Positions 1-48,797 of a DNA stretch of 64,000 bases are shown piece after piece. The position numbers and the translations under genes were made by a program. Source of the stretch: Strigamia acuminata. Its lineage: Eukaryota; Arthropoda; Chilopoda; Geophilomorpha; Linotaeniidae. The stretch lies in assembly GCA_949358305.1 (NCBI GenBank), contig OX442320.1, forward strand, positions 3,426,259 through 3,490,258, written 5' to 3'. The notes beneath the pieces are model-generated. The model had not been told where the DNA came from. It saw only the letters and a list, made by a program, of their open reading frames with translations, and did no database searches. Positions within the stretch are counted from its first letter, which is position 1; each line of letters opens with the position of its first letter.

Positions 1-22
1 AATTGAGACGAAACCAACAAAG

Positions 23-22854: not shown

Positions 22855-23335
22855 CACAACACACTATTGGTTGCCTTCATGTAGGCAGTCATGTTGTTGA
22901 ACAAAGTTGTGATGTCATATGTCATGAGATATCAAATTACTTGGGTTCCAGAGTAAGGTTAATCACCAAGTGTAGTGCTACACTTGACCTTTTTACTCAG
23001 TCTATTTGCATGAAAAATGAACTCCCACAGCCAACAAAGTTCTACATTGACAATGTCATTGTTACTTAACTCTAGCTTATGGAGCAAAATGCTTTGAAAT
23101 GGTTAAAGAACTACATGTAATTGTTATCTCACATAATTAATTTTAAAGTTTTAAAATAGCTTATTAGTGCTCTCCCCTTGTAAGTGTTGTAACCAAAACA
23201 TTTCAACTTTCTTTTTTTACAAGAAAAAAATAAAAAACCAAACTTTGTACACACTTAGTCGACCAGGTCATTTTGTCGACTAAACGGTGTTGACTAAACA
23301 GCGTCGACTAAGTGAGTGTCTACTAAATAACCCTT
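22600..23335. mobile_element. Element with many TTTAGTCGAC motifs
   Basis: GTTTAGTCGACAAACG-type motifs in both orientations crowd 22610-22790 and 23257-23330 and flank about 460 bases of other sequence, as subterminal repeats of a DNA transposon would. The left half is also present in block X-prime (48540-48790), the right half is not. The 84-codon frame at 22815-23069 has no recognisable similarity and is not called as a gene. Confidence 0.45.
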
Positions 23336-23420
23336 ATTTTATGCAGATTTATGGTCTGGTCTGAAAAATGTTAACAATGTGTTGCACATATTTTATAAAA
23401 GTTTTACAATTTTTTACACA

Positions 23421-23588
23421 CATTTTTTAAATAATTTACGTAAAAGAGCATTCCATTTCATTACATTATTTAATTTGAAAACTCCCGTTATAATGTCTTT
23501 GCAAGGCAAAAATGCAAATATACATTTAGACATTTTTTAATTTTGTATTAATCAATAGATTGTGAATTTCTTGTCCACTTCGCATCAG
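23421..23588 (+). repeat. Intron 3-prime segment shared by all three giant exons
   Basis: The 168 bases before exon A are almost the same as those before exon B (about 30893-31063) and exon C (about 36496-36666), ending in the acceptor TTTCTTGTCCACTTCGCATCAG-type sequence. This shows that the exons were duplicated together with their intron flank. Confidence 0.85.
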
Positions 23589-26500
23589 CAACTACATCTA
23601 CTGAAACACCTTCCACTACTCCAACTGAAACACCTTCAACAACTCCTACAGAAACTCCATCAACTACTCCTTCTGAAACTCCATCAACTACACTTACTGA
23701 AACTCCTTCCACTACACCCACTGAAACTCCTTCAACAACTCCTACAGAAACTCCATCAACAACTCCAACTGAAACTCCATCAACTACACCAACTGAAACA
23801 CCTTCCACTACTCCAACTGAAACTCCATCAACAACTCCAACTGAAACTCCATCAACTACACCTACTGAAACTCCTTCAACAACTCCTACTGAAACTCCAT
23901 CAACTACTCCTACTGAAACTCTTTCCACTACACCCACTGAAACTCCTTCCACTACTCCAACTGAAACTCCATCAACTACACCTACTGAAACTCCTTCCAC
24001 TACACCTACTGAAACTCCATCAACTACACCTACTGAAACTCCTTCCACTACACCTACTGAAACTCCATCAACTACACCTACTGAAACTCCTTCTACTACA
24101 CCAACTGAAACACCTTCAACAACTCCTACAGAAACACCATCAACTACACCTACTGAAACTCCTTCCACTACACCTACTGAAACTCCTTCTACTACACCAA
24201 CTGAAACACCTTCAACAACTCCTACAGAAACACCATCAACTACACCTACTGAAACTCCTTCCACTACACCTACTGAAACTCCTTCCACTACACCTACTGA
24301 AACTCCATCAACTACACCTACTGAAACTCCTTCCACTACACCTACTGAAACTCCATCAACTACACCTACTGAAACTCCTTCTACTACACCAACTGAAACA
24401 CCTTCAACAACTCCTACAGAAACACCATCAACTACACCTACTGAAACTCCTTCCACTACACCTACTGAAACTCCATCAACTACACCTACTGAAACTCCTT
24501 CTACTACACCAACTGAAACACCTTCAACAACTCCTACAGAAACACCATCAACTACACCTACTGAAACTCCATCAACTACACCTACTGAAACTCCTTCCAC
24601 TACACCCACTGAAAGTCCTTCCACTACTCCAACTGAAACTCCATCAACTACACCTACTGAAACTCCTTCCACTACACCTACTGAAACTCCATCAACTACA
24701 CCTACAGAAACTCCTTCCACTACACCCACTGAAACTTCTTCCACTACTCCAACTGAAACTCCATCAACTACACCTACTGAAACTCCTTCCACTACACCTA
24801 CTGAAACTCCATCAACTACACCTACTGAAACTCCTTCCACTACACCTACTGAAACTCCATCAACTACACCCACTGAAACTCCTTCCACTACGCCAACTGA
24901 AACTCCATCAACTACACCTACTGAAACTCCTTCTACTACACCAACTGAAACACCTTCAACAACTCCTACAGAAACACCATCAACTACACCTACTGAAACT
25001 CCTTCCACTACACCTACTGAAACTCCATCAACTACACCCACTGAAACTCCTTCCACTACGCCAACTGAAACTCCATCAACTACACCTACTGAAACTCTTT
25101 CCACTACACCCACTGAAACTCCTTCCACTACGCCAACTGAAACTCCATCAACTACACCTACTGAAACTCCTTCTATTACACCAACTGAAACACCCTCAAC
25201 AACTCGTACAGAAACACCATCAACTACACCTACTGAAACTCCTTCCACTACACCTACTGAAACTCCATCAACTACATCCACTGAAACTCCTTCCACTACA
25301 CCCACTGAAACTCCTTCCACTACGCCAACTGAAACTCCATCAACTACACCTACTGAAACTCCTTCTATTACACCAACTGAAACACCCTCAACAACTCGTA
25401 CAGAAACACCATCAACTACACCTACTGAAACTCCTTCCACTACACCTACTGAAACTCCATCAACTACATCCACTGAAACTCCTTCCACTACTCCAACTGA
25501 AACTCCATCAACTACACCTACTGAAACTCCTTCCACTACACCTACTGAAACTCTATCAACTACACCTACTGAAACTCCTTCCACTACACCTACTGAAACT
25601 CCATCAACTACACCTACTGAAACTCCTTCCACTACACCTACTGAAACTCCATCAACTACATCCACTGAAACTCCTTCCACTACTCCAACTGAAACTCCAT
25701 CAACTACACCTACTGAAACTCCTTCCACTACACCTACTGAAACTCTATCAACTACACCTACTGAAACTCCTTCCACTACACCTACTGAAACTCCATCAAC
25801 TACACCTACTGAAACTCCTTCCACTACACCTACTGAAACTCCATCCACTACACCCACTGAAACTCCTTCCACTACACCCACTGAAACTCCTTCCACTACT
25901 TCAACTGAAACTCCATCAACTACACCTACTGAAACTCCTTCCACTACACCCACTGAAACTCCTTCCACTACACCTACTGAAACTCCTTCTACTACACCAA
26001 CTGAAACACCTTCAACAACTCCTACAGAAACACCATCAACTACACCTACTGAAACTCCTTCCACTACACCTACTGAAACTCCATCAACTACACATACTGA
26101 AACTCCTTCCACTACACCTACTGAAACTCCATCCACTACACCCACTGAAACTCCATCCACTACACCCACTGAAAGTCCTTCCACTACACCTACTGAAACT
26201 TCTTCTACTACACCAACTGAAACACCTTCAACAACTCCTACAGAAACACCATCAACTACACCTACTGAAACTCCTTCCACTACACCTACTGAAACTCCTT
26301 CTACTACACCAACTGAAACACCTTCAACAACTCCTACAGAAACACCATCAACTACACCTACTGAAACTCCTTCCACTACACCCACTGAAAGTCCTTCCAC
26401 TACTTCAACTGAAACTCCATCAACTACACCTACTGAAACTCCTTCCACTACACCTACTGAAACTCCATCAACTACACCTACTGAAACTCTTTCCACTACA

Positions 26501-29500
26501 CCCACTGAAACTTCTTCCACTACTCCAACTGAAACTCCATCAACTACACCTACTGAAACTCCTTCCACTACACCTACTGAAACTCCATCAACTACACCTA
26601 CTGAAACTCCTTCCACTACACCTACTGAAACTCCATCAACTACACCCACTGAAAGTCCTTCCACTACTCCAACTGAAACACCTTCAACAACTCCTACAGA
26701 AACACCATCAACTACACCTACTGAAACTCCTTCCACTACACCCACTGAAAGTCCTTCCACTACTTCAACTGAAACTCCATCAACTACACCTACTGAAACT
26801 CCTTCCACTACACCTACTGAAACTCCATCAACTACACCTACTGAAACTCTTTCCACTACACCCACTGAAACTTCTTCCACTACTCCAACTGAAACTCCAT
26901 CAACTACACCTACTGAAACTCCTTCCACTACACCTACTGAAACTCCATCAACTACACCTACTGAAACTCCTTCCACTACACCTACTGAAACTCCATCAAC
27001 TACACCCACTGAAAGTCCTTCCACTACTCCAACTGAAACACCTTCAACAACTCCTACAGAAACACCATCAACTACACCTACTGAAAATCCTTCCACTACA
27101 CCTACTGAAACTCCATCAACTACACCCACTGAAACTCCTTCCACTACGCCAACTGAAACTCCATCAACTACACCTACTGAAACTCCTTCCACTACACCCA
27201 CTGAAACTCCTTCCACTACGCCAACTGAAACTCCATCAACTACACCTACTGAAACTCCTTCTACTACACCAACTGAAACACCCTCAACAACTCCTACAGA
27301 AACACCATCAACTACACCTACTGAAACTCCTTCCACTACACCTACTGAAACTCCTTCCACTACACCCACTGAAACTCCATCCACTACACCCACTGAAACT
27401 CCTTCCACTACTTCAACTGAAACTCCATCAACTACACCTACTGAAACTCCTTCCACTACACCCACTGAAACTCCATCCACTACACCCACCGAAACTCCTT
27501 CCACTACTTCAACTGAAACTCCATCAACTACACCTACTGAAACTCCTTCCACTACACCTACTGAAACTCCATCAACTACACCTACTGAAACTCTTTCCAC
27601 TACACCTACTGAAACTCCATCAACTACACCTACTGAAACTCCTTCCACTACACCCACTGAAACTCCATCCACTACACCCACTGAAACTCCTTCCACTACT
27701 TCAACTGAAACTCCATCCACTACACCCACTGAAACTCCTTCCACTACTCCAACTGAAACTCCATCAACTACACCTACTGAAACTCCTTCCACTACACCCA
27801 CTGAAACTCCATCCACTACACCTACTGAAACTCCTTCCACTACACCTACTGAAACTCCATCAACTACACCCACTGAAAGTCCTTCCACTACTCCAACTGA
27901 AACACCTTCAACAACTCCTACAGAAACACCATCAACTACACCTACTGAAAATCCTTCCACTACACCTACTGAAACTCCATCAACTACACCCACTGAAACT
28001 CCTTCCACTACGCCAACTGAAACTCCATCAACTACACCTACTGAAACTCCTTCCACTACACACACTGAAACTCCTTCCACTACGCCAACTGAAACTCCAT
28101 CAACTACACCTACTGAAACTCCTTCTACTACACCAACTGAAACACCCTCAACAACTCCTACAGAAACACCATCAACTACACCTACTGAAACTCCTTCCAC
28201 TACACCTACTGAAACTCCTTCCACTACACCCACTGAAACTCCATCCACTACACCCACTGAAACTCCTTCCACTACTTCAACTGAAACTCCATCAACTACA
28301 CCTACTGAAACTCCTTCCACTACACCCACTGAAACTCCATCCACTACACCCACCGAAACTCCTTCCACTACTTCAACTGAAACTCCATCAACTACACCTA
28401 CTGAAACTCCTTCCACTACACCTACTGAAACTCCATCAACTACACCTACTGAAACTCTTTCCACTACACCTACTGAAACTCCATCAACTACACCTACTGA
28501 AACTCCTTCCACTACACCCACTGAAACTCCATCCACTACACCCACTGAAACTCCTTCCACTACTTCAACTGAAACTCCATCCACTACACCCACTGAAACT
28601 CCTTCCACTACTCCAACTGAAACTCCATCAACTACACCTACTGAAACTCCTTCCACTACACCCACTGAAACTCCATCCACTACACCTACTGAAACTCCTT
28701 CCACTACACCTACTGAAACTCCATCAACTACACCCACTGAAAGTCCTTCCACTACTCCAACTGAAACTCCATCAACTATACCTACTGAAACTCCTTCTAC
28801 TACACCAACTGAAACACCTTCAACAACTCCTACAGAAACACCATCAACTACACCTACTGAAACTCCTTCCACTACATCTACTGAAACTCCATCAACTACA
28901 CCTACTGAAACTCCTTCCACTACACCCACTGAAACTCCATCAACTACACCTACTGAAACTCCTTCCACTACACCTACTGAAACTCCATCAACTACACCTA
29001 CTGAAACTCCTTCCACTACACCCACTGAAACTCCTTCCACTACTCCAACTGAAACTCCATCAACTACACCTACTGAAACTCCTTCCACTACACCCACTGA
29101 AACTCCATCCACTACACCTACTGAAACTCCTTCCACTACACCTACTGAAACTCCATCAACTACACCCACTGAAAGTCCTTCCACTACTCCAACTGAAACT
29201 CCATCAACTATACCTACTGAAACTCCTTCTACTACACCAACTGAAACACCTTCAACAACTCCTACAGAAACACCATCAACTACACCTACTGAAACTCCTT
29301 CCACTACATCTACTGAAACTCCATCCACTACACCTACTGAAACTCCTTCCACTACACCTACTGAAACTCCATCAACTACACCCACTGAAAGTCCTTCCAC
29401 TACTCCAACTGAAACTCCATCAACTATACCTACTGAAACTCCTTCTACTACACCAACTGAAACACCTTCAACAACTCCTACAGAAACACCATCAACTACA

Positions 29501-30059
29501 CCTACTGAAACTCCTTCCACTACATCTACTGAAACTCCATCAACTACACCTACTGAAACTCCTTCCACTACACCTACTGAAACTCCATCAACTACACCTA
29601 CTGAAACTCCTTCCACTACACCCACTGAAACTCCTTCCACTACTCCAACTGAAACTCCATCAACTACACCTACTGAAACTCTTTCCACTACACCCACTGA
29701 AACACCTTCCACTACTCCGATTGAAATTCCATCGACTACACCAACTGAAACACCCTCCACTACTCCAACTGAAACTCCAACAACTATTCCAACTGATACT
29801 CCAACTACACCTGCTGAAACTCCTTCAACAACTACAGTAACCCCATCAACTGTACCAACTGAAATACTTTCCACTATTTCAACTGAATCACTTTCCACCA
29901 CTCCAATTGAAATTCCATCAACTACGTCAACTGAAACTCTACCAACTACACCTACTGAAAAACCTTCTACTATTCCAACTGAAAAGCCTTCCATTATCCC
30001 TACTTTAACTCCAACTACACCGACATCTACACCAATTCCAGATGAAAATATAATAGAAG
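23589..30059 (+). CDS. Giant mucin-type exon A: TETPSTTP octapeptide array
   Basis: The acceptor CACTTCGCATCAG ends at 23588 and the donor GAAG/GTGAGATAAATAG follows 30059. The exon is 6471 bases, exactly 2157 codons, entered and left in phase 1. It is open throughout, but the frame has no ATG. About 250 tandem 24-base units encode T-E-T-P-S-T-T-P; near 29700 they become irregular (PIEIPS, PTDTPTTPAE, EKPSTIP) and end TSTPIPDENIIE. Five of eight residues are Ser or Thr and each unit carries one Glu, so the product should be extended, acidic and densely O-glycosylated if secreted: a mucin, glue, gel or coat protein. Higher-order repeats of 360 bases (26401 against 26761) and 864 bases (27083 against 27947) show recent internal duplication. 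A cell-surface role is inferred from composition only. Confidence 0.8.
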
Positions 30060-31063
30060 GTGAGATAAATAGTTTCTTTGTTTGTGTGATTAAAATTTGT
30101 TTAAGTTTGGTTATTATTTGAGGACAACTATAATTTGTGAGAAGAGTTCTATTATCATTATCACAATAATAGTTTTTCACGGGCAGGCTACCCACCCTTT
30201 TTTCTAATTCATTTTTACTTTAGACTAATCCTTCTTATTTCTTTCCATTTTCTCTGATTTTATCTTCATCCAAGTGTGATGACTAATTATTCTAAATGTA
30301 TGCGCAAACTCAACATTGCGCATCACATTATTTTCAACAATAGGAGTTTATTTCTACCTTTCACCTCTTAATTCACGTTTAATAAACCTGATCACGTGAC
30401 CAAGTTCACGTACTCACATTTCCCATAACAAGAATCACTTCTCACTCTGGCCTCAATTGAGATACATCTCCTAGATGCTAGTTTGAGGACGTTACCTTAT
30501 GATTTTGCGCCTTAAACAAGCGACACACCATTCTATAGCCCCATTGCGCCTCTATTTGCCGAATATTTTAGTATTCAAATGCTCGTTGATATTCTTCGCC
30601 CCCTGTGGGATTAATAATACTGTGATTTCTCATTCATTTACGTCATTTATATTGGGCCTATTTGGCGGTGTTGTATCCAGGAATAAATAAAAACAGGTTT
30701 AGTGTTTGCTTAAACACTGCAACTGCAGCAGCCATTTTATTTTCCGAAGCTGTCTGCTTGAAAACATAAGGCAAAAGTGATTCCCGGCAGCTGGAATGCA
30801 CATTGCAACAAAAATGCACTCAGTTAAGAACAAATCGCTGTTCATAACTGTAATAACTATTACAGAGTGAATAAATCACGTTAGGCATTACAACACATTG
30901 CCAAATAAATTTACATAAAAGCGCATTTCATTTCATTACATTATTTAATTTGAAAACTCTCGTTATAATGTCTTTGCAAGGCAAAAATGCAAATATACAT
31001 TTAGACATTTTTTAATTTTGTATTAATCAATAGATTGTGAATTTCTTGTCCACTTCGCATCAG
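30060..31063 (+). other. Intron between exons A and B (1004 bases)
   Basis: GTGAGATAAATAGTTTC to CACTTCGCATCAG. From about 30176 it contains a degraded copy of the TGTCA...TGACA LTR (CACGGGCAGGCTACCC start, GCGCA-rich body). The intron at 35663-36666 has exactly the same length and differs at only about four positions seen by eye, so the duplication is recent. The 63-codon ORF inside is LTR relic sequence. Confidence 0.8.
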
Positions 31064-34000
31064 CAACTACATCTACTGAAACACCTTCCACTACTCCAAC
31101 TGAAACACCTTCAACAACTCCTACAGAAACTCCATCAACTACACCTACTGAAACTCCTTCCACTACACCCACTGAAACTCCATCAACTACACCTACTGAA
31201 ACTCCATCAACTACACCTACTGAAACTCCATCAACTACACCTACTGAAACTCTTTCCACTACACCCACTGAAACTCCATCAACTACACCTACTGAAACTC
31301 CTTCCACTAGACCCACTGAAACTCCATCAACTACACCTACTGAAACTCCATCAACTACACCTACTGAAACTCCTTCCACTACACTCACTGAAACTCCATC
31401 AACTACACCTACTGAAACTCTTTCCACTACACCCACTGAAACTCCATCAACTACACCTACTGAAACTCCTTCCACTAGACCCACTGAAACTCCATCAACT
31501 ACACCTACTGAAACTCCATCAACTACACCTACTGAAACTCCTTCCACTACACCCACTGAAACTCCATCAACTACACCTACTGAAACTCCATCAACTACAC
31601 CTACTGAAACTCCATCAACTACACCTACTGAAACTCCTTCCACTACACCCACTGAAACTCCTTCAACAACTCCTACAGAAACTTCATCAACTACACCTAC
31701 TGAAACTCCTTCCACTACACCCACTGAAACTCCATCAACTACACCTACTGAAACTCCTTCCACTACACCCACTGAAACTCCATCAACTACACCTACTGAA
31801 ACTCCATCAACTACACCTACTGAAACTCCTTCCACTACACCCACTGAAACTCCATCAACTACACCTACTGAAACTCCTTCCACTACACCCACTGAAACTC
31901 CATCAACTACACCTACTGAAACTCCATCAACTACACCTACTGAAACTCCTTCCACTACACCCACTGAAACTCCATCAACTATACCTACTGAAACTCAATC
32001 AACTACACCTACTGAAACTCCATCAACTACACCTACTGAAACTCCATCAACTACACCTACTGAAACTCCATCAACTACACCTACTGAAACTCCATCAACT
32101 ACACCTACTGAAACTCCATCAACTACACCTACTGAAACTCCTTCCACTACACCCACTGAAACTCCATCAACTACACCTACTGAAACTCCATCAACTACAC
32201 CTACTGAAACTCCATCAACTACACTTACTGAAACTCCTTCCACTACACCTACTGAAACTCCTTCCACTACACCCACTGAAACTCCATCAACTACACCTAC
32301 TGAAACTCCATCAACTACACCTACTGAAACTCCTTCCACTACACCCACTGAAACTCCATCAACTACACCTACTGAAACTCCATCAACTACACCTACTGAA
32401 ACTCCATCAACTACACCTACTGAAACTCCTTCCACTACACCCACTGAAACTCCATCAACTACACCTACTGAAACTCCATCAACTACACCTACTGAAACTC
32501 CATCAACTACACCTACTGAAACTCCTTCCACTACACCCACTGAAACTCTTTCAACAACTCCTACAGAAACTTCATCAACTACACCTACGGAAACTCCTTC
32601 CACTACACCCACTGAAACTCCATCAACTACACCTACTGAAACTCCATCAACTACACCTACTGAAACTCTGTCAACTACACCTACTGAAACTCCATCAACT
32701 ACACCTACTGAAACTCCATCAACTACACCTACTGAAACTCCATCAACTACACCTACTGAAAATCCTTCCACTACACCCACTGAAACTCCATCAACTACAC
32801 CTACTGAAACTCCATCAACTACACCTACTGAAACTCCTTCCACTACACCCACTAAAACTCCTTCAACAACTCCTACAGAAACTCCATCAACTACTCCTAC
32901 TAAAACTCCATCAACTACACCTACTGAAACTCCTTCCACTACACCCACTGAAACTCCTTCAACAACTCCTACAGAAACTCCATCAACAACTCCTACTGAA
33001 ACTCCATCAACTACACCTACTGAAACTCCGTCAACTACACCTACTGAAACTCCTTCCACTACACCCACTGAAACACCTACCACTACACCCACTGAAACTC
33101 CTTCAACAACACCTACTGAAACTCCTTCAACAACTCCTACAGAAACTCCATCAACAACTCCTACTGAAACTCCATCAACTACACCTACTGAAACTCCATC
33201 AACTACACCTACTGAAACTCCTTCCACTACACCCACTGAAACTCCTTCCACTACACCCACTGAAACTCCTTCAACAACACCTACTGAAACTCCTTCCACT
33301 ACACCCACTGAAACTCCATCAACTACACCTACTGAAACTCCATCAACTACACCTACTGAAACTCCATCAACTACACCTACTGAAACTCCTTCCACTACAC
33401 CCACTGAAACTCCTTCAACAACTCCTACAGAAACTCCATCAACTACTCCTACTAAAACTCCATCAACTACACCTACTGAAACTCCTTCCACTACACCCAC
33501 TGAAACTCCTTCAACAACTCCTACAGAAACTCCATCAACTACACCTACTGAAACTCCTTCCACTACACCCACTGAAACTCCTTCAACAACTCCTACAGAA
33601 ACTCCATCAACTACTCCTACTGAAACTCCATCAACTACACCTACTGAAACTCCTTCCACTACACCCACTGAAACTCCTTCAACAACTCCTACTGAAACTC
33701 CATCAACTACACCTACTGAAACTCCATCAACTACACCTACTGAAACTCCTTCCACTACACCCACTGAAACACCTACCACTACACCCACTGAAACTCCATC
33801 AACTACACCTACAGAAACTCCTTCCACTACACTCACTGAAACTCCTTCCACTACACCCACTGAAAGTCCTTCCACTACTTCAACTGAAACTCCATCAACT
33901 ACACCTACTGAAACACCCTCAACAACTCCTACAGAAACACCATCAACTACACCTACTGAAACTCCTTCCACTACACCTACTGAAACTCCATCAACTACAT

Positions 34001-35662
34001 CCACTGAAACTCCTTCCACTACTCCAACTGAAACTCCATCAACTACACCTACTGAAACTCCTTCCACTACACCTACTGAAACTCCATCAACTACACCTAC
34101 CGAAACTCCTTCCACTACACCTACTGAAACTCCATCAACTACACCTACTGAAACTCCATCAACTACACCCACTGAAAGTCCTTCCACTACTCCAACTGAA
34201 ACTCCATCAACTACACCTACTGAAACTCCTTCTACTACACCAACTGAAACACCTTCAACAACTCCTACAGAAACACCATCAACTACACCTACTGAAACTC
34301 CTTCCACTACACCTACTGAAACTCCATCAACTACATCCACTGAAACTCCTTCCACTACTCCAACTGAAACTCCATCAACTACACCTACTGAAACTCCTTC
34401 CACTACACTTACTGAAACTCCATCAACTACGCCAACTGAAACTCCATCAACTACACCTACTGAAACTCCTTCTACTACACCAAATGAAACACCCTCAACA
34501 ACTCCTACAGAAACACCATCAACTACACCTACTGAAACTCCTTCCACTACACCTACTGAAACTCCATCAACTACATCCACTGAAACTCCTTCCACTACTC
34601 CAACTGAAACTCCATCAACTACACCTACTGAAACTCCTTCCACTACACCTACTGAAACTCCATCAACTACACCTACTGAAACTCCTTCCACTACACCTAC
34701 TGAAACTCCATCAACTACACCTACTGAAACTCCTTCCACTACACCCACTGAAACTCCTTCCACTACGCCAACTGAAACTCCATCAACTACACCTATTGAA
34801 ACTCCTTCTACTACACCAACTGAAACACCCTCAACAACTCCTACAGAAACACCATCAACTACACCTACTGAAACTCCTTCCACTACACCTACTGAAACTC
34901 CATCAACTACATCCACTGAAACTCCTTCCACTACTCCAACTGAAACTCCATCAACTACACCTACTGAAACTCCTTCCACTACACCTACTGAAACTCCATC
35001 AACTACACCTACTGAAACTCCTTCCACTACACCTACTGAAACTCCATCCACTACACCCACTGAAACTCCTTCCACTACACCCACTGAAACTCCATCCACT
35101 ACACCCACTGAAACTCCTTCCACTACTTCAACTGAAACTCCATCAACTACACCTACTGAAACTCCTTCCACTACACCCACTGAAACTTCATCCACTACAC
35201 CCACTGAAACTCCTTCCACTACTTCAACTGAAACTCCATCAACTACACCTACTGAAACTCCATCCACTACACCCACTGAAACTCTTTCCACTACACCCAC
35301 TGAAACACCTTCCACTACTCCGATTGAAATTCCATCGATTACACCAACTGAAACACCCTCCACTACTCCAACTGAAACTCCAACAACTATTCCAACTGAT
35401 ACTCCAACTACACCTGCTGAAACTCCTTCAACAACTACAGTAACCCCATCAACTGTACCAACTGAAATACTTTCCACTATTTCAACTGAATCACTTTCCA
35501 CCACTCCAATTGAAATTCCATCAACTACGTCAACTGAAACTCTACCAACTACACCTACTGAAAAACCTTCTACTATTCCAACTGAAAAGCCTTCCACTAT
35601 CCCTACTTTAACTCCAACTACACCGACATCTACACCAATTCCAGATGAAAATATAATAGAAG
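31064..35662 (+). CDS. Giant mucin-type exon B: TETPSTTP array
   Basis: 4599 bases, 1533 codons, phase 1 at both ends, with the same acceptor and donor text as exons A and C and no stop codon seen. Roughly 180 octapeptide units. The first about 70 bases are identical to A and C. The 5-prime two thirds are made of a cassette (CCATCAACTACACCTACTGA / CCTTCCACTACACCCACTGA) typical of exon C, while the last third (from about 33830) resembles exon A, including TESPSTTST and the irregular tail PIEIPSITPTETPS. The exon is therefore a mosaic of A-like and C-like arrays, as unequal exchange would produce. The tail ends IPDENIIE before GTGAG. Confidence 0.8.
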
Positions 35663-36666
35663 GTGAGATAAATAGTTTCTTTGTTTGTGTGATTAAAATT
35701 TGTTTAAGTTTGGTTATTATTTGAGGACAACTATAATTTGTGAGAAGAGTTCTATTATCATTATCACAATAATAGTTTTTCACGGGCAGGCTACCCACCC
35801 TTTTTTCTAATTCATTTTTACTTTAGACTAATCCTTCTTATTTCTTTCCATTTTCTCTGATTTTATCTTCATCCAAGTGTGATGACTAATTATTCTAAAT
35901 GTATGCGCAAACTCAACATTGCGCATCACATTATTTTCAACAATAGAAGTTTATTTCTACCTTTCACCTCTTAATTCACGTTTAATAAACCTGATCACGT
36001 GACCAAGTTCACGTACTCACATTTCCCATAACAAGAATCACTTCTCACTCTGGCCTCAATTGAGATACATCTCCTAGATGCTAGTTTGAGGACGTTACCT
36101 TATGATTTTGCGCCTTAAACAAGCGACACACCATTCTATAGCCCCATTGCGCCTCTATTTGCCGAATATTTTAGTATTCAAATGCTCGTTGATATTCTTC
36201 GCCCCCTGTGGGATTAATAATACTGTGATTTCTCATTCATTTACGTCATTTATATTGGGCCTATTTGGCGGTGTTGTATCCAGGAATAAATAAAAACAGG
36301 TTTAGTGTTTGCTTAAACACTGCAACTGCAGCAGCCATTTTATTTTCCGAAGCTGTCTGCTTGAAAACATAAGGCAAAAGTGATTCCCGGCAGCTGGAAT
36401 GCACATTGCAACAAAAATGCACTCAGTTAAGAACAAATCGCTATTCATAACTGTAATAACTATTACAGAGTGAATAAATCACGTTAGGCATTACAACACA
36501 TTGCCAAATAAATTTACATAAAAGAGCATTTCATTTCATTACATTATTTAATTTGAAAACTCTCGTTATAATGTCTTTGCAAGGCAAAAATGCAAATATA
36601 CATTTAGACATTTTTTTATTTTGTATTAATCAATAGATTGTGAATTTCTTGTCCACTTCGCATCAG
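35663..36666 (+). other. Intron between exons B and C (1004 bases)
   Basis: Near-identical twin of the 30060-31063 intron: same length, with differences noticed at the positions matching 30346, 30829, 30920 and 31013. It carries the same LTR relic. Confidence 0.8.
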
Positions 36667-39600
36667 CAACTACATCTACTGAAACACCTTCCACTACTCC
36701 AACTGAAACACCTTCAACAACTCCTACAGAAACTCCATCAACTACACCTACTGAAACTCCTTCCACTACACTCACTGAAACTCCATCAACTACACCTACT
36801 GAAACTCCTTCCACTACAGCCACTGAAACTCCATCAACTACACCTACTGAAACTCCATCAACTACACCTACTGAAACTCCTTCCACTACACCCACTGAAA
36901 CTCCATCAACTACACCTACTGAAACTCCTTCCACTACACCCACTGAAACTCCATCAACTACACCTACTGAAACTCCATCAACTACACCTACTGAAACTCC
37001 TTCCACTACACCCACTGAAACTCCATCAACTACACCTACTGAAACTCCTTCCACTATACCCACTGAAACTCCATCAACTACACCTACTGAAACTCCATCA
37101 ACTACACCTACTGAAACTCCTTCCACTACACCCACTGAAACTCCATCAACTACACCTACTGAAACTCCTTCCACTACACCCACTGAAACTCCATCAACTA
37201 CACCTACTGAAACTCCATCAACTACACCTACTGAAACTCCATCAACTACACCTACTGAAACTCCTTCCACTACACCCACTGAAACTCCATCAACTACACC
37301 TACTGAAACTCCATCAACTACACCTACTGAAACTCCATCAACTACACCTACTGAAACTCCTTCCACTACACCCACTGAAACTCCTTCAACAACTCCTACA
37401 GAAACTCCATCAACTACTCCTACTAAAACTCTATCAACTACACCTACTGAAACTCCTTCCACTACACCCACTGAAACTCCTTCAACAACTCCTACAGAAA
37501 CTCCATCAACAACTCCTACTGAAACTCCATCAACTACACCTACTGAAACTCCATCAACTACACCTACTGAAACTCCTTCCACTACACCCACTGAAACTCC
37601 ATCAACTACACCTACTGAAACTCCATCAACTACACCTACTGAAACTCCATCAACTACACCTACTGAAACTCCTTCCACTACACCCACTGAAACTCCTTCA
37701 ACAACTCCTACAGAAACTCCATCAACTACTCCTACTAAAACTCCATCAACTACACCTACTGAAACTCCTTCCACTACACCCACTGAAACTCCTTCAACAA
37801 CTCCTACAGAAACTCCATCAACAACTCCTACTGAAACTCCATCAACTACACCTACTGAAACTCCTTCCACTACACTCACTGAAACTCCTTCCACTACACC
37901 CACTGAAAGTCCTTCCACTACTTCAACTGAAACTCCATCAACTACACCTACTGAAACACCCTCAACAACTCCTACAGAAACACCATCAACTACACCTACT
38001 GAAACTCCTTCCACTACACCTACTGAAACTCCATCAACTACATCCACTGAAACTCCTTCCACTACTCCAACTGAAACTCCATCAACTACACCTACTGAAA
38101 CTCCATCAACTACACCTACTGAAACTCCTTCCACTACACCCACTGAAACTCCATCAACTACACCTACTGAAACTCCTTCCACTACACCCACTGAAACTCC
38201 ATCAACTACACCTACTGAAACTCCATCAACTACACCTACTGAAACTCCATCAACTACACCTACTGAAACTCCTTCCACTACACCCACTGAAACTCCATCA
38301 ACTACACCTACTGAAACTCCATCAACTACACCTACTGAAACTCCATCAACTACACCTACTGAAACTCCTTCCACTACACCCACTGAAACTCCTTCAACAA
38401 CTCCTACAGAAACTCCATCAACTACTCCTACTAAAACTCTATCAACTACACCTACTGAAACTCCTTCCACTACACCCACTGAAACTCCTTCAACAACTCC
38501 TACAGAAACTCCATCAACAACTCCTACTGAAACTCCATCAACTACACCTACTGAAACTCCATCAACTACACCTACTGAAACTCCTTCCACTACACCCACT
38601 GAAACTCCATCAACTACACCTACTGAAACTCCATCAACTACACCTACTGAAACTCCATCAACTACACCTACTGAAACTCCATCAACTACACCTACTGAAA
38701 CTCCATCAACTACACCTACTGAAACTCCTTCCACTACACCCACTGAAACTCCATCAACTACACCTACTGAAACTCCATCAACTACACCTACTGAAACTCC
38801 ATCAACTACACCTACTGAAACTCCATCAACTACACCTACTGAAACTCCATCAACTACACCTACTGAAACTCCATCAACTACACCTACTGAAACTCCATCA
38901 ACTACACCTACTGAAACTCCTTCCACTACACCCACTGAAACTCCTTCAACAACTCCTACAGAAACTTCATCAACTACACCTACTGAAACTCCTTCCACTA
39001 CACCCACTGAAACTCCATCAACTACACCTACTGAAACTCCTTCCACTACACCCACTGAAACTCCATCAACTACACCTACTGAAACTCCATCAACTACACC
39101 TACTGAAACTCCTTCCACTACACCCACTGAAACTCCATCAACTACACCTACTGAAACTCCATCAACTACACCTACTGAAACTCCATCAACTACACCTACT
39201 GAAACTTCTTCCACTACACCCACTGAAACTCCATCAACTACACCTACTGAAACTCCATCAACTACACCTACTGAAACTCCATCAACTACACCTACTGAAA
39301 CTCCTTCCACTACACCCACTGAAACTCCTTCAACAACTCCTACAGAAACTCCATCAACTACACCTACTGAAACTCCATCAACTACACCTACTGAAACTCC
39401 TTCCACTACACCCACTGAAACTCCATCAACTACACCTACTGAAACTCCATCAACTACACCTACTGAAACTCCATCAACTACACCTACTGAAACTCCTTCC
39501 ACTACACCCACTGAAACTCCTTCAACAACTCCTACAGAAACTCCATCAACTACTCCTACTAAAACTCCATCAACTACACCTACTGAAACTCCTTCCACTA

Positions 39601-42600
39601 CACCCACTGAAACTCCTTCAACAACTCCTACAGAAACTCCATTAACAACTCCTACTGAAACTCCATCAACTACACCTACTGAAACTCCATCAACTACACC
39701 TACTGAAACTCTTTCCACTACACCCACTGAAACTCCATCAACTACACCTACTGAAACTCCATCAACTACACCTACTGAAACTCCTTCCACTACACCCACT
39801 GAAACTCCATCAACAACTCCTACTGAAACTCCATCAACTACACCTACTGAAACTCCATCAACTACACCTACTGAAACTCCTTCCACTACACCCACTGAAA
39901 CTCCATCAACTACACCTACTGAAACTCCATCAACTACACCTACTGAAACTCCATCAACTACACCTACTGAAACTCCTTCCACTACACCCACTGAAACTCC
40001 TTCAACAACTCCTACAGAAACTCCATCAACTACTCCTACTAAAACTCCATCAACTACACCTACTGAAACTCCTTCCACTACACCCACTGAAACTCCTTCA
40101 ACAACTCCTACAGAAACTCCATCAACAACTCCTACAGAAACTCCATCAACAACTCCTACTGAAACTCCATCAACTACACCTACTGAAACTCCTTCCACTA
40201 CACTCACTGAAACTCCTTCCACTACACCCACTGAAAGTCCTTCCACTACTTCAACTGAAACTCCATCAACTACACCTACTGAAACACCCTCAACAACTCC
40301 TACAGAAACACCATCAACTACACCTACTGAAACTCCTTCCACTACACCTACTGAAACTCCATCAACTACATCCACTGAAACTCCTTCCACTACTCCAACT
40401 GAAACTCCATCAACTACACCTACTGAAACTCCATCAACTACACCTACTGAAACTCCTTCCACTACACCCACTGAAACTCCATCAACTACACCTACTGAAA
40501 CTCCTTCCACTACACCCACTGAAACTCCATCAACTACACCTACTGAAACTCCATCAACTACACCTACTGAAACTCCATCAACTACACCTACTGAAACTCC
40601 TTCCACTACACCCACTGAAACTCCATCAACTACACCTACTGAAACTCCATCAACTACACCTACTGAAACTCCATCAACTACACCTACTGAAACTCCTTCC
40701 ACTACACCCACTGAAACTCCTTCAACAACTCCTACAGAAACTCCATCAACTACTCCTACTAAAACTCTATCAACTACACCTACTGAAACTCCTTCCACTA
40801 CACCCACTGAAACTCCTTCAACAACTCCTACAGAAACTCCATCAACAACTCCTACTGAAACTCCATCAACTACACCTACTGAAACTCCATCAACTACACC
40901 TACTGAAACTCCTTCCACTACACCCACTGAAACTCCATCAACTACACCTACTGAAACTCCATCAACTACACCTACTGAAACTCCATCAACTACACCTACT
41001 GAAACTCCATCAACTACACCTACTGAAACTCCATCAACTACACCTACTGAAACTCCTTCCACTACACCCACTGAAACTCCATCAACTACACCTACTGAAA
41101 CTCCATCAACTACACCTACTGAAACTCCATCAACTACACCTACTGAAACTCCATCAACTACACCTACTGAAACTCCATCAACTACACCTACTGAAACTCC
41201 ATCAACTACACCTACTGAAACTCCATCAACTACACCTACTGAAACTCCTTCCACTACACCCACTGAAACTCCTTCAACAACTCCTACAGAAACTTCATCA
41301 ACTACACCTACTGAAACTCCTTCCACTACACCCACTGAAACTCCATCAACTACACCTACTGAAACTCCTTCCACTACACCCACTGAAACTCCATCAACTA
41401 CACCTACTGAAACTCCATCAACTACACCTACTGAAACTCCTTCCACTACACCCACTGAAACTCCATCAACTACACCTACTGAAACTCCATCAACTACACC
41501 TACTGAAACTCCATCAACTACACCTACTGAAACTTCTTCCACTACACCCACTGAAACTCCATCAACTACACCTACTGAAACTCCATCAACTACACCTACT
41601 GAAACTCCATCAACTACACCTACTGAAACTCCTTCCACTACACCCACTGAAACTCCTTCAACAACTCCTACAGAAACTCCATCAACTACACCTACTGAAA
41701 CTCCATCAACTACACCTACTGAAACTCCTTCCACTACACCCACTGAAACTCCATCAACTACACCTACTGAAACTCCATCAACTACACCTACTGAAACTCC
41801 TTCCACTACACCCACTGAAACTCCTTCAACAACTCCTACAGAAACTCCATCAACTACTCCTACTAAAACTCCATCAACTACACCTACTGAAACTCCTTCC
41901 ACTACACCCACTGAAACTCCTTCAACAACTCCTACAGAAACTCCATTAACAACTCCTACTGAAACTCCATCAACTACACCTACTGAAACTCCATCAACTA
42001 CACCTACTGAAACTCTTTCCACTACACCCACTGAAACTCCATCAACTACACCTACTGAAACTCCATCAACTACACCTACTGAAACTCCTTCCACTACACC
42101 CACTGAAACTCCATCAACAACTCCTACTGAAACTCCATCAACTACACCTACTGAAACTCCATCAACTACACCTACTGAAACTCCTTCCACTACACCCACT
42201 GAAACTCCATCAACTACACCTACTGAAACTCCATCAACTACACCTACTGAAACTCCATCAACTACACCTACTGAAACTCCTTCCACTACACCCACTGAAA
42301 CTCCTTCAACAACTCCTACAGAAACTCCATCAACTACTCCTACTAAAACTCCATCAACTACACCTACTGAAACTCCTTCCACTACACCCACTGAAACTCC
42401 TTCAACAACTCCTACAGAAACTTTATCAACAACTCCTACTGAAACTCCATCAACTACACCTACTGAAACTCCATCAACTACACCTACTGAAACTCTTTCC
42501 ACTACACCCACTGAAACTCCATCAACTACACCTACTGAAACTCCATCAACTACACCTACTGAAACTCCTTCCACTACACCCACTGAAACTCCTTCAACAA

Positions 42601-45600
42601 CTCCTACTGAAACTCCATCAACTACACCTACTGAAACTCCATCAACTACACCTACTGAAACTCCTTCCACTACACCCACTGAAACACCTACCACTACACC
42701 TACTGAAACTCCATCAACTACACCTACTGAAACTCCTTCTACTACACCCACTGAAACTCCTTCAACAACTCCTACAGAAACTCCATCAACTACACCTACT
42801 GAAACTCCATCAACTACACCTACTGAAACTCCTTCAACAACTCCCACAGAAACTCCATCAACTACACCTACTGAAACTCCATCAACTACACCTACTGAAA
42901 CTCCTTCCACTACACCCACTGAAACTCCTTCAACAACTCCCACAGAAACTCCATCAACTACACCTACTGAAACTCCATCAACTACACCTACTGAAACTCC
43001 TTCTACTACACCCACTGAAACTGCTTCAACAACTCCTACAGAAACTCCATCAACTACACCTACTGAAACTCCATCAACTACACCCACTGAAACTCCTTCA
43101 ACAACACCTACAGAAACTCCATCAACTACACCCACTGAAACTCCTTCCACTACACCCACTGAAACTCCTTCCACTACACCCACTGAAACTCCTTCAACAA
43201 CTCCTACAGAAACTCCATCAACTACACCTACTGAAACTCCATCAACTACACCTACTGAAACTCCTTCCACTACACCCACTGAAACTCCATCAACTACACC
43301 TACTGAAACTCCATCAACTACACCTACTGAAACTCCTTCCACTACACCCACTGAAACTCCTTCAACAACACCTACAGAAACTCCATCAACTACACCCACT
43401 GAAACTCCTTCCACTACACCCACTGAAACACCATCAACTACACCTACTGAAACTCCTTCCACTACACCCACTGAAACTCCTTCAACAACTCCTACTGAAA
43501 CTCCATCAACTACATCTACTGAAACTCCTTCAACAACTCCCACAGAAACTCCATCAACTACACCTACTGAAACTCCATCAACTACACCTACTGAAACTCC
43601 TACTACTACACCCACTGAAACTCCTTCAACAACTCCTACAGAAACTCCATCAACTACACCTACTGAAACTCCATCAACTACACCTACTGAAACTCCATCA
43701 ACTACACCTACTGAAAGTCCATCAACTACACCTACTGAAACTCCTTCCACTACACCCACTGAAACTCCTTCCACTACACCCACTGAAACTCCTTCAACAA
43801 CTCCTACAGAAACTCCATCAACTACACCTACTGAAACTCCATCAACTACACCTACTGAAACTCCTTCCACTACACCCACTGAAACTCCATCAACTACACC
43901 TACTGAAACTTCATCAACTACACCTACTGAAACTCCTTCCACTACACCCACTGAAACTCCTTCAACAACACCTACAGAAACTCCATCAACTACACCCACT
44001 GAAACTCCTTCCACTACACCCACTGAAACACCATCAACTACACCTACTGAAACTCCTTCCACTACACCCACTGAAACTCCTTCAACAACTCCTACTGAAA
44101 CTCCATCAACTACATCTACTGAAACTTCTTCCACTACACCCACTGAAACTCCTTCCACTACACCCACTGAAACTCCTTCCACCACACCCACTAAAACTCC
44201 TTCCACTACACCCACTGAAACTCCTTCAACAACACCTACAGAAACTCCATCAACTACACCTACTGAAACTCCATCAACTACACCCACTGAAACTCCTTCA
44301 ACAACTCCCACAGAAACTCCATCAACTACACCTACTGAAACTCCATCAACTACACCTACTGAAACTCCTTCCACTACACCCACTGAAACTCCTTCAACAA
44401 CTCCCACAGAAACTCCATCAACTACACCTACTGAAACTCCATCAACAACTCCTACAGAAACTCCATCAATTACACCTACTGAAACTTCTTCCACTACACC
44501 CACTGAAACTCCTTCCACTACACCCACTGAAACTCCTTCCACCACACCCACTGAAACTCCTTCCACTACACCCACTGAAACTCCTTCAACAACTCCCACA
44601 GAAACTCCATCAACTACACCTACTGAAACTCCATCAACAACTCCCACAGAAACTCCATCAACTACACCTACTGAAACTCCATCAACTACACCTACTGAAA
44701 CTCCATCAACTACACCTACTGAAACTCCATCAACTACACCTACTGAAACTTCTTCAACAAGTCCCACAGAAACTCCATCAACTACACCCACTGAAACTCC
44801 TTCCACTACACCCACTGAAACACCATCAACTACACCTACTGAAACTCCTTCCACTACACCCACTGAAACTCCTTCAACAACTCCTACTGAAACTCCATCA
44901 ACTACACCTACTGAAACTCCTTCCACTACACCCACTGAAACTCCTTCCACTACACCCACTGAAACTCCTTCCACTACACCCACTGAAACTCCTTCAACAA
45001 CTCCTACAGAAACTTCATCAACTACACCTACTGAAACACCTTCCATTACACCCACTGAAACTTCTTACACTACACCCACTGAAACTCCTTTAACAACTCC
45101 TACAGAAACTCCATCAACTACACCTACTGAAACTCCATCAACTACACCTACTGAAACTCCTTCCACTACACCCACTGAAACTCCATCAACTACACCTACT
45201 GAAACTCCATCAACTACACCTACTGAAACTCCATCAACTACACCTACTGAAACTCCTTCCACAACACCCACTGAAACTCCTTCCACTACACCCACTGAAA
45301 CTCCTTCAACAACTCCTACAGAAACTCCATCAACTACACCTACTGAAACTCCTTCCACTACACACACTGAAACTCCTTCCACTACACCCACTGAAACTCT
45401 TTCAACAACTCCTACAGAAACTCCATCAACTACACCTACTGAAACTCCATCAACTACACCTACTGAAACTCCTTCCACTACACCCACTGAAACTCCATCA
45501 ACTACACCTACTGAAACTCCATCAACTACACCTATTGAAACTCCATCAACTACACCTACTGAAACTCCTTCCACTACACCCACTGAAACTCCTTCCACTA

Positions 45601-47169
45601 CACCCACTGAAACTCCTTCAACAACTCCTACAGAAACTCCATCAACTACACCTACTGAAACTCCATCAACTACACCTACTGAAACTCCTTCCACTACACC
45701 CACTGAAACTCCTTCAACAACACCTACAGAAACTCCATCAACTACACCCACTGAAACTCCTTCCACTACACCCACTGAAACACCATCAACTACACCTACT
45801 GAAACTCCTTCCACTACACCCACTGAAACTCCTTCAACAACTCCTACTGAAACTCCATCAACTACACCTACTGAAACTCCTTCCACTACACCCACTGAAA
45901 CTCCTTCCACTACACCCACTGAAACTCCTTCCACTACACCCACTGAAACTCCTTCCACTACACCCACTGAAACTCTTTCAACAACACCTACAGAAACTCC
46001 ATCAATTACACCTACTGAAACTCCATCAACTACACCCACTGAAACTCCTTCCACTACACCCACTGAAACTCCTTCCACTACACCCACTGAAACACCATCA
46101 ACTACACCTACTGAAACTCCTTCCACTACACCCACTGAAACTCCTTCAACAACTCCTACAGAAACTCCATCAACTACACCTACTGAAACTCCTTCCACTA
46201 CACCCACTGAAACTCCTTCTACTACACCCACTGAAACTCCTTCAACAACTCCTACAGAAACTCCATCAACTACACCTACTGAAACTCCATCAACTACACC
46301 TACTGAAACTCCATCAACTACACCTACTGAAACTCCATCAACTACACCTACTCAAACTCCTTCCACTACACCCACTGAAACACCATCAACTACACCTACT
46401 GAAACTCCTTCCACTACACCCACTGAAACTCCTTCAACAACTCCTACTGATACTCCATCAACTACACCTACTGAAACTCCTTCCACTACACCCACTGAAA
46501 CTCCTTCCATTACACCCACTGAAACTCCTTCCACTACACCCACTGAAACTCCTTCCACTACACCCACTGAAACTTTTTCAAAAACTCCTACCGAAACTCC
46601 ATCAACTACACCTACTGAAACTCCATCAACTACACCTACTGAAACTCCTTCCACTACACCCACTGAAACACCATCAACTACACCTACTGAAACTCCTTCC
46701 ACTACACCCACTGAAACACCTTCCACTACACCCACTGAAACTCCATCAACTACACCTACTAAAACTCCTTCCACTACACCCACTGAAACTCCTTCCACTA
46801 CACCTACTAAAACTCCTTCCACTACACCCTCTGAAACTCCTTCCACTACACTCACTGAAACTCCTTCAGCAACTCCTACAGAAACTCCATCAACTACACC
46901 TACTGAAACTCCAACAACTATTCCAACTGATACTCCAACTACACCTGCTGAAACTCCTTCAACAACTACAGTAACCCCATCAACTGTATCAACTGAATCA
47001 CTTTCCACCACTCCAATTGAAATTCCATCAACTACGTCAACTGAAACTCCATCAACTACACCTACTGAAAAACCTTCTACTATTCCAACTGAAAAGCCTG
47101 CCACTATTCCTACTGTAACTCCAACTACACCGACATCTACACCAATTCCAGATGAAAATATAATAGAAG
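36667..47169 (+). CDS. Giant mucin-type exon C: TETPSTTP array, 3501 codons
   Basis: 10503 bases, again a multiple of three with phase 1 ends. It opens with the same units as A and B and closes with PTDTPTTPAETPSTTTVTPS, EKPATIPT and TSTPIPDENIIE before GTGAGATAAATAG. About 430 octapeptides. It has its own higher-order repeats: a block of 2304-2328 bases (TACACTCACT at 37871 and 40199; CCATTAAC at 39640 and 41944) and a 600-base block (TACATCTACT at 43511 and 44111). Glu is sometimes replaced by Lys (ACT AAA ACT), Gln or Asp; I noticed no stop. It is one of the longest repeat exons one could expect in an animal gene. Assembly collapse or expansion is a risk. Role as for exon A; downstream exons are not found. 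Confidence 0.8.
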
Positions 47170-47284
47170 GTGAGATAAATAGTTTCTTTGTTTGTGTGAT
47201 TAAAATTTGTTTAAGTTTGGTTATTATTTGAGGACAACTATAAATTGTGAGAAGAGTTCTATTATCATTAATATAATAATAATT
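47170..47284 (+). other. Start of intron after exon C
   Basis: GTGAGATAAATAGTTTCTTT followed by sequence matching the other two introns with several substitutions, up to the LTR insertion. More diverged than the A/B intron pair, so this copy is older. Confidence 0.7.
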
Positions 47285-47848
47285 TGTCATGGGCAGGCTA
47301 CCCACCCTATTTTCTAATTCATTTTTTCTTTAGACTAATCCTTCCTATCTTTTCCCATTTTCTCTGATTTTATCTTCCTTCAAGTGTGATGACTAATCAT
47401 TCTAAATGTATGCGCAAACTCAGCATTGCGCATCACATTATTTTCAACAATAGGAATTTATTTCTACCTTTCACTCTTTGATTCACCTTTAATAAACCTG
47501 ATCAGCTGACCAAGTTTACTTAGTCACATTTCCCATTTCCCATTTCCCATTTCCCATTTCCCATTTGCCGACTATTTTAGCATTCAAATGCTCGTTGATA
47601 TTCTTCGCCCCAGTGTGATTAATAATACTGCGCATTCTCATTTACATCCAATGTGAATTTGATCTTGTCGAATATGAAATAATGTTTAGTCACTGCGAGA
47701 CCAGATTCTTTTAATTACCTGATGTCCACATTTGACGGCGGCCATTTTAGAGGGAATCTACGAGCCTTTGCCCACTTATTTTGTGCCAAATTCACTTTTC
47801 CGCGAAATATAGTCAAATTAATTTCTAACACTCAAATTAATCGTGACA
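47285..47848 (+). repeat. Solo LTR (TGTCA...TGACA), AATT target duplication
   Basis: Starts TGTCATGGGCAGGCTACCC, ends AAATTAATCGTGACA, flanked by AATT on each side (47281-47284, 47849-47852). Inverted termini TGTCA/TGACA. It matches, in opposite orientation, 50882-51556, including GATGTCCACATTTGA and AATCTACGA.CTTTGCCCA. Solo LTRs arise by recombination between the two LTRs of one element. Confidence 0.75.
47529..47572. repeat. CCCATTT microsatellite
   Basis: About six copies of a 7-base CCCATTT unit inside the solo LTR. Confidence 0.85.
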
Positions 47849-48797
47849 AATTATTATTATTATAGATAAAATAAAGTTTTAAATTATTAGGCAATAATTT
47901 GTTAGGGAATAATTTGTTAGCAGGAAGATTTTCACGATCATTGTTTTGTAAAGTTTAATTATATTTTTTCTGCACCATTAGAACATGATATTCAGTCTAG
48001 CAGGACTAGTCTTAAAAATACTTGCAATACATTCAGTCCTGCATTTCTGGTTATAAATATCTATTCGCCATTGTTGCATGTTGGTAATCCTAAATGACAT
48101 GAAAGACATCGAATTACAGTGGTTACAGCAGTTGGCCAACATGGCCGCCAACTTTTAACTAAAAAGTGAATGCAGAAAACTCATACAGAACAAATCATGT
48201 ACTTATATAAAAATAAGAAATCATATTTAGTTCCTGATGCAAATGAACAACATAAAGAATAAATCTATAAATCATATACAGTGACATTCGGGCCAATCAT
48301 GATTACTCTACACAATAAAATGTTTCATTGAAACAAACAAAAGCAAATGCATCACAGTAATGTATTTAAAGCACAAGACAGCAAAATACGCACAGCGGCA
48401 TATAAACGCACTAATAATCTGAGGACCGCTGAAACGCATAAGTGAACAGCTTGCAAATCACAGAATACGAGTACACTAAACCGTAAATGTACGCCTATAA
48501 TATGCAACTCGAAGTCGATCAAACATTAACAATATCTTTAGATCGAATCGTTTAGTCGTTGCACATTTAGTCGAACATCGCGACAAAGCAGTCATTTTAT
48601 CGACACGCCGTTTAGTCGACAAACGGCTTGTCGACTAGGCAAGTGTTGGGTCGTTTAGTCGACCCATACGGCGAGTACGTTTTGTCGATGTAACGTTTAG
48701 TTGACAAACGTTTCGTCGCCGTTACATTTAGTCGACAAACAACAAATATAAATATAAATGGCGATCGATTTAGTTCGTTTTCTGTTGCAATGGACAT
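47819..48797. repeat. Duplicated block X-prime (matches 21872-22854)
   Basis: Counterpart of block X, in the same orientation, about 26 kb downstream. The match stops abruptly after GTTGCAATGGACAT. Confidence 0.85.

What the first reader, a model, noticed from the sequence alone, without database searches (positions are those of the whole stretch)
23589..47169. Three giant phase-symmetric exons encode a >7000-residue Thr/Pro/Glu mucin that start-codon ORF calling misses
The three blocks begin and end with matching splice sites in phase 1, all have lengths divisible by three (6471, 4599, 10503), and in that one frame read TETPSTTP without a visible stop. The frame has no ATG, so automated calls pick shadow frames (VSVGVV antisense, HQLHLLK sense). 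Tandem exon duplication with symmetric phases gives a gene that can grow or shrink by whole exons and by octapeptides. Such a product could be a gel, glue, silk-like coat or gut-lining mucin.
Basis: partly seen in the sequence, partly recalled or inferred. Interest (0 to 1): 0.9.

Follow-up and report, generated by a model that had tools for sequence, protein, structure and literature searches.

The report
Centipede gene for 34,000-residue giant mucin
A centipede chromosome carries six giant stop-free blocks of one Thr/Pro/Ser/Glu repeat, the last running straight into cysteine-rich domains, which are predicted to be spliced into a single, likely secreted mucin of about 34,000 residues that would be one of the largest animal proteins and is possibly a gland gel or glue.

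Summary
The window is chromosome 7 of the centipede Strigamia acuminata. The three blocks are the first of six same-strand repeat blocks spanning 171 kb; the other three lie downstream of the window. All six are open in the TETPSTTP frame (0 stops). The sixth is a 36-kb open block that runs in the same frame from repeats into a tail with 25 eight-cysteine motifs, then TGA and polyA signals. A signal-peptide-like exon with a phase-1 donor lies at 18452-18575; two relatives of it in the same cluster precede other mucin-type frames. Common variation within repeat units sits exactly at the seven fourfold-degenerate sites, as expected if this frame is translated. The joined model has 34,139 residues. 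Splicing into one mRNA, secretion, glycosylation and function are inferred; no transcript data were available, and arrays longer than the 12-20 kb read fragments may be mis-sized. Closest in kind: arthropod mucins, fly Sgs glue, spider AgSp glue.

The parts
18452..18575 (+). Predicted first exon: signal-peptide-like MLVTFQYQNSTTKFFSVIAIIVFYITVYLSTQATAKKEIKK, phase-1 donor AAAG|GTGAGATAAAT
   Evidence: Hydropathy plus donor scan; relatives at C9:3653643 and 3677563, 59% identity, donor at the same place
18576..23558 (+). Predicted intron 1
   Evidence: Between the predicted donor and the TAG acceptor
23559..30059 (+).
30060..31033 (+). Predicted intron 2; its middle resembles dispersed repeats found elsewhere in the genome
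31034..35662 (+). Block/exon E2, 4629 nt, phase 1-1
35663..36636 (+).
36637..47169 (+). Block/exon E3, 10533 nt, phase 1-1
47170..64000 (+). Start of the predicted 61-kb intron to E4. E4 (C9:3534737-3561067), E5 (3564849-3583040) and E6 (3584876-3620985) lie beyond the window end (C9:3490258)
   Evidence: copia and gypsy ORFs inside

Best explanation
The three blocks are the first of six stop-free Thr/Pro/Ser/Glu-repeat blocks on Strigamia acuminata chromosome 7, predicted to be exons of one gene whose product would be a likely secreted mucin of 34,139 residues ending in 25 eight-cysteine motifs. Inferred order: a signal-peptide exon (18452-18575), five cassette exons with phase-1 ends (6.5, 4.6, 10.5, 26.3 and 18.2 kb), then a 36.1-kb terminal exon whose frame runs from repeats into the Cys-rich tail and a stop. 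Inferred mechanism: the 32,381-residue repeat part is densely O-glycosylated into a stiff hydrated brush with one Glu per octapeptide, while the Cys-rich tail, and perhaps the single Cys at the start of each exon, cross-link chains into a gel or glue. The gene would grow at two scales: unequal exchange adds or removes in-frame 24-nt units inside exons, and copying of exon plus flank adds whole exons without breaking the frame, because both ends are phase 1. The mucin arrays hold in-phase acceptor-like ACAG|AA sites but no AG|GT, so a growing array would not split itself. Most likely role, no better than even odds: a glue or gel of geophilomorph epidermal or sternal defence glands.
For: Mucin parts of E1-E6 registered on the TETPSTTP codons: 0 stops in that frame against 10 (antisense VSVGVV), 336, 2,536, 3,439 and 5,791 in the others. 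Of 24 unit positions, the 7 with 5% or more minor bases are exactly the fourfold-degenerate ones (3,696 units, 3,077 perfect). E6 frame runs 12,037 codons from repeats into 1,717 tail residues with 217 Cys, then TGA and polyA signals; the eight ~160-aa tail repeats have dN/dS 0.17-0.42 in 28 of 28 pairs. Six acceptor-side copies genome-wide (6 of 6 candidates scored) and five donor-side copies, as one gene with five cassettes and a last exon would show. Signal exon with two relatives, both upstream of mucin-type frames. TAG|ATTGT site kept in all six exons and both relatives. Joined model: 102,420 nt, 0 internal stops; no N in the 206,742 bp read.
Against: No RNA or protein evidence. E3 and E4 are separated by 61 kb full of retrotransposon ORFs. 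E1-E3 flanks are nearly identical (E1/E2 introns 4 of 1004 differences), so recent copies may not all be used. E4-E6 arrays (18-36 kb) exceed the 12-20 kb read fragments and may be mis-sized. Rare one-step unit variants fall 33, 56 and 37 on codon positions 1, 2, 3, i.e. new changes look nearly unselected. E4 and E5 are also open antisense over their length. Donor counts are lower bounds: one search scored 40 of 97 candidates, 40 of 84. The signal-exon threshold was set after the hit was seen; no dedicated signal-peptide program was run. 0 of 3,634 database candidates matched the tail. A paper on centipede defensive glue does not contain the word mucin.
Confidence: 0.7

Rival explanations
1. 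Coding mucin, but not one 34,000-residue chain: E1-E5 are alternative or partly dead cassettes, and most mRNAs join the signal exon to one or a few of them, or directly to E6.
For: All ends are phase 1, so any combination stays in frame; E1-E3 are recent copies; a nearby relative, P1, has a signal exon with a stop.
Against: 0 of the five upstream blocks has an in-frame stop although E4 and E5 are 26 and 18 kb; all five keep donor and acceptor.
Confidence: 0.23
2. Non-coding C/A-rich minisatellite that happens to be open; the reader's splice sites are chance.
For: Low-complexity satellites can stay open in several frames; the antisense frame has only 10 stops; rare unit variants show no third-position excess.
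Against: Common variation only at the seven fourfold sites; same frame continues into conserved Cys-rich domains; ends copied with the blocks.
Confidence: 0.05
3. Same protein, other job: gut-lining or egg-coat mucin, or a component of the male's silk-like web, rather than a defence-gland glue.
For: Nothing in the sequence fixes the tissue; Drosophila mucins are expressed in many tissues (PMC2515642, passages); silky threads of male geophilomorphs are reported (PMC8056527, passages).
Against: No chitin-binding or von Willebrand domain in the tail by Pfam, which weakens a peritrophic role; sticky defence secretions are documented in centipedes (PMC11170834, passages).
Confidence: 0.5

Closest known systems
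Drosophila mucins (Muc/Mur; PMC2515642, passages)
   Same: PTS repeats over more than a third of the length, Ser+Thr over 25%
   Different: Reported range 300-23,000 aa; this model is 34,139 aa in six repeat blocks with an unnamed Cys-rich tail
Drosophila Sgs1/3/7/8 salivary glue genes (PMC6352337, passages)
   Same: Short first exon, phase-1 intron, Thr-rich repeats, distinct C-terminus; glue Cys suggested to cross-link
   Different: Sgs intron interrupts the signal peptide, here it follows it; longest Sgs listed is 2,245 aa; homology not tested
Spider aggregate glue AgSp1/AgSp2 (PMC6553539, passages)
   Same: Extremely long repetitive, Thr/Pro-containing secreted glue; few introns
   Different: AgSp1 predicted 1,383 kD against 3,498 kDa backbone here; Gly-rich repeats and spidroin terminal domains; no such domain found here
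Frog glue protein PRIT-Dg (PMC11237159, passages)
   Same: Mucin-like secreted protein remodelled by exon duplication and repeats into a defensive glue
   Different: IgGFc-binding domains; vertebrate; no relation shown
WAP four-disulfide core domain (PF00095)
   Same: Eight Cys, CP start, central CC
   Different: Last two Cys adjacent; only sub-threshold (16.5 and 16.8 of 20.8 bits)
MUC16 and titin (recalled, from no call)
   Same: Giant exons; very large chains
   Different: Not compared here

Membership tests
Mucin (criteria of PMC2515642) | Ser+Thr above 25% | tested here: met
   58.9% of the predicted protein
Mucin (criteria of PMC2515642) | Repeats with Pro, Thr, Ser, over one third of length, at least four repeats | tested here: met
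   32,381 of 34,139 residues; 3,079 exact TETPSTTP
Mucin | Secretory signal | tested here: inconclusive
   Predicted exon by hydropathy, with relatives; not shown to be spliced on
Mucin | Dense O-glycosylation | not testable with these tools
   20,106 Ser+Thr in the model; no glycan data
Vertebrate-type gel-forming mucin | von Willebrand D or cystine-knot domains | tested here: not met
   Pfam scan of the whole 1,717-aa tail lists only DUF397 (no single stretch passing) and sub-threshold WAP
WAP domain protein | PF00095 over its curated cut-off | tested here: not met
   16.5 of 20.8 bits for the tail, 16.8 for gene A; 0 of 19 genome matches lie in C9 3.4-4.0 Mb
Sgs-type glue gene | Phase-1 intron by the signal peptide, Thr repeats, distinct C-terminus | tested here: inconclusive
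   Architecture alike as predicted but the intron follows rather than interrupts the signal peptide; homology not tested
Spidroin glue (AgSp) | Spidroin terminal domains | tested here: not met
   No such Pfam family in the tail, the signal exon or block E2 at E<=0.1

The most novel reading that the evidence does not exclude
One centipede gene makes a 34,000-residue secreted mucin from five frame-neutral giant cassettes and a 36-kb terminal coding exon, among the longest coding exons and largest secreted proteins of any animal; it grows by whole-exon and octapeptide copying at once, and its tail is built from an undescribed eight-cysteine domain family with its own gene cluster on chromosome 7.
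Probability: 0.6. Interest if true: 0.88.

Novelty: new variant of a known kind. Interest (0 to 1): 0.76.

Why it matters
If right, it would approach titin in chain length (about 35,000 residues, recalled) and exceed the largest mucins of the Drosophila survey seen here (23,000 aa). Such a gene escapes annotation in three ways: its first five giant blocks have no Met, short reads would collapse the repeats, and trypsin has little to cut (79 Lys+Arg in 32,381 repeat residues). It offers a clean case of how extreme proteins may grow without losing frame (symmetric phases plus arrays without splice donors) and a concrete candidate for the uncharacterised matrix of geophilomorph gland secretions.

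Tried and rejected
In E6 the site reads CAC; TAG|ATTGT[G/C] 30 nt upstream is kept in all six exons and in the relatives P1 and P2; and P2 carries CQLVN ten times, nine of them inside its frame. The CAG model also stays open, 34,079 aa, so the main claim does not hang on this.

Gene A (13001-15496; Cys-motif domains plus about 35 copies of a 14-residue repeat) as the 5' end of the mucin: rejected, it has its own stop and AATAAA. Gene C (ATG at C9:3621299, phase-1 donor at 3621411) is likewise separate.

Each block as its own terminal exon: reading through the donor stops after exactly 20 residues in 5 of 5, as expected of recent copies; set aside because no Cys-rich tail accompanies E1-E5.

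Led nowhere: genome pattern search, 0 hits (the exact pattern does not allow all codons used); Rfam, 0; protein database, 0 of 3,634 candidates for the tail, and whether it holds arthropods was not tested; PDB by sequence, 0; NCBIfam, 0; structure of one 38-aa Cys domain of gene A, pLDDT 79.7, pTM 0.47, no PDB match at E<=0.001 among 28 listed, weak ones being small cystine-knot peptides, taken as uninformative. DUF397 (30.1 bits, over its cut-off of 24 for the whole tail, but 0 single stretches) is taken as a repeat artefact. Higher-order repeats: no dominant period in E1-E5 (best lag 0.01-0.03 above the median), only higher similarity at short lags in E6.

Full report
What the window is. The genome behind the window has 237,517,015 bases in 157 contigs; C1 is 66,985,994 and C11 9,836,499 long. 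The genome note of the centipede Strigamia acuminata gives a longest scaffold of 66,985,994 bp and an N90 of 9,836,499 (PMC10556566, parts 1 and 2 of 3 seen); its total is 17,267 bp and one scaffold larger than the set held here. The window is C9:3426259-3490258, chromosome 7 (12.25 Mb). Reads came from 12-20 kb fragments.

The observation. The three blocks are as described: AG|...|GT, phase 1 at both ends, lengths 6471, 4599 and 10503, one stop-free TETPSTTP frame, no Met in it. ATG-based calling returns four ORFs of 300 aa or more there, none in that frame.

Six blocks, not three. The 189 nt before E1 have six copies in the genome, all on the + strand of C9 (6 of 6 candidates scored); the donor side has five, also on C9 + (which scored 40 of 97 and 40 of 84 candidates). 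Reading on showed E4 (26.3 kb), E5 (18.2 kb) and E6. E6 has no donor copy: its frame runs 12,037 codons (C9:3584872-3620982) from TETPSTTP through SMTPTET (158 copies) and LTSPTEI sectors into a 1,717-residue tail with 217 Cys, then TGA and AATAAA/ATTAAA signals. Six acceptors, five donors and one terminator are what one gene with five cassettes and a last exon should show.

The 5' end. Between gene A's end and E1 a scan for hydrophobic ATG exons with phase-1 donors gave four rows at three loci; the strongest locus, 18452-18575, ends AAAG|GTGAGATAAAT, the same first 11 intron bases as the five mucin donors, though beyond that the flanks are only about 60% alike. Over 40.2 kb of flank on both strands it is the only locus at a threshold that I set after seeing it. 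Independent support: relatives at C9:3653643 and 3677563 (59% identity, E 6.7e-8 and 7.8e-7) have the donor at the same place and lie upstream of other mucin-type frames, P1 and P2. P1 is probably broken (a stop in its signal exon).

Which acceptor. Both sites are phase 1. I place exon starts at 23559, 31034 and 36637. The joined model is 102,420 nt, 34,139 aa, 0 internal stops; the gene would span 176,276 bp.

Is the frame translated? Registered on the TETPSTTP codons, the mucin parts of E1-E6 have 0 stops in that frame and 10, 336, 2,536, 3,439 and 5,791 in the others. The antisense frame's 10 stops show that openness alone is weak evidence. The stronger test is where units vary. Among 3,696 units (3,077 perfect in protein), the positions with at least 5% minor bases are 3, 9, 12, 15, 18, 21 and 24, exactly the seven fourfold-degenerate sites; the one third position that is not fourfold (Glu) varies in 0.16%. 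In each of the six exons third positions hold most variants. Against this, rare variants one step from a common unit fall 33, 56 and 37 on codon positions 1, 2 and 3: new mutations look nearly unselected, and the signal lies in variants that have spread. Finally, the frame is shared with eight ~160-residue Cys-rich repeats with dN/dS 0.17-0.42 in 28 of 28 pairs.

The tail. Each ~160-residue repeat holds three eight-Cys motifs; 24 Cys are invariant across the eight repeats and the window's gene A. The tail has 25 motif matches with 200 of its 217 Cys. Pfam does not name it. The WAP model gave 19 genome matches, none in this cluster. A genome search with one 161-aa repeat gave 15 matches, all on C9 between 3.44 and 3.98 Mb: a local gene family.

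How it grew. E1 and E2 introns differ at 4 of 1004 sites; donor-side flanks of E1-E5 are 91-100% and acceptor-side flanks of E1-E6 84-99% identical. The mucin exons end ...PDENIIEG|GTGAGATAAAT and the relatives' signal exons ...TDENTIQG|GTCAGATAAAT (read by eye), so the cassettes may carry a copy of an old first-exon end. The mucin parts hold 603 AG, 539 of them in ACAGAA, and 0 AGGT (summed): in-phase cryptic acceptors, no donors. The 61-kb E3-E4 intron holds copia and gypsy ORFs.

Mechanism and role. Shown: architecture, open frame, variation pattern, gene family. Inferred: splicing into one mRNA, secretion, O-glycosylation, gel or glue. Composition (46% Thr, 23% Pro, 13% Ser, 12% Glu; 3.5 MDa backbone) fits an acidic brush with a disulfide-rich end. 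Lithobius telopodal glue holds 18 unknown 'Glue' families, several Cys-rich, and geophilomorphs have aggregated sternal defence glands; the same paper does not mention mucin (PMC11170834, passages). In frogs a mucin-like protein became a defensive glue through exon duplication and new repeats (PMC11237159, passages). I favour a defence-gland glue, at even odds against gut, coat or web roles.

Literature. Listings for Strigamia with mucin (7 papers, 6 listed), centipede sternal-gland glue (4), longest exon with mucin (8), giant protein/mucin/single exon/arthropod terms (12, 10 listed) and exon-duplication/mucin terms (7) showed no report of this gene; apart from the passages named above only titles and starts of abstracts were seen, so absence from print is not established. 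MUC16 exon size and titin length are recalled.

Noticed in passing
window 13001-15496 (+): Separate gene A: three eight-Cys motifs, then about 35 copies of a 14-residue repeat (TVTDPKSPNNIHGS), own stop and polyA signal.
   Followed up: partly
C9:3653643-3658661 and C9:3677563-3684281 (L047-L050): Relatives P1 (probably broken) and P2 (1,871-codon frame): signal exon plus other Thr/Pro repeats with recurring CQLVNLSMIDFE in P2.
   Followed up: partly
C9:3621299-3623669 (L039, L040): Gene C right after the mucin gene: signal-like exon with phase-1 donor, then a 744-codon frame of Cys motifs.
   Followed up: partly
window 9287-9391 (-): Weak relative of the signal exon on the opposite strand (53% over 34 aa, E 0.018).
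   Followed up: no
window 30060-30123, 35663-35726, 47170-47233: Reading through the donors gives the same kind of 20-residue hydrophobic tail and stop in all five cassettes (GEINSFFVCVIKI...); could be an intron-retention end or just recent duplication.
   Followed up: partly
window 12206-12475 (+): Signal-like frame MKFAMYVKIVNLLYLITRTNAAVQVNA upstream of gene A; no good phase-1 donor found.
   Followed up: partly
window 2-4162 (+), 49699-50349 (-), 52844-58005 (+), 60828-63657 (-): Copia- and gypsy-type ORFs; the last pair has no Pfam name but recurs several times in the 61-kb intron.
   Followed up: partly
window 49140-49410: 14-bp tandem repeat GTGAAGATGAGATA, about 19 copies, unrelated to the mucin unit.
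   Followed up: no
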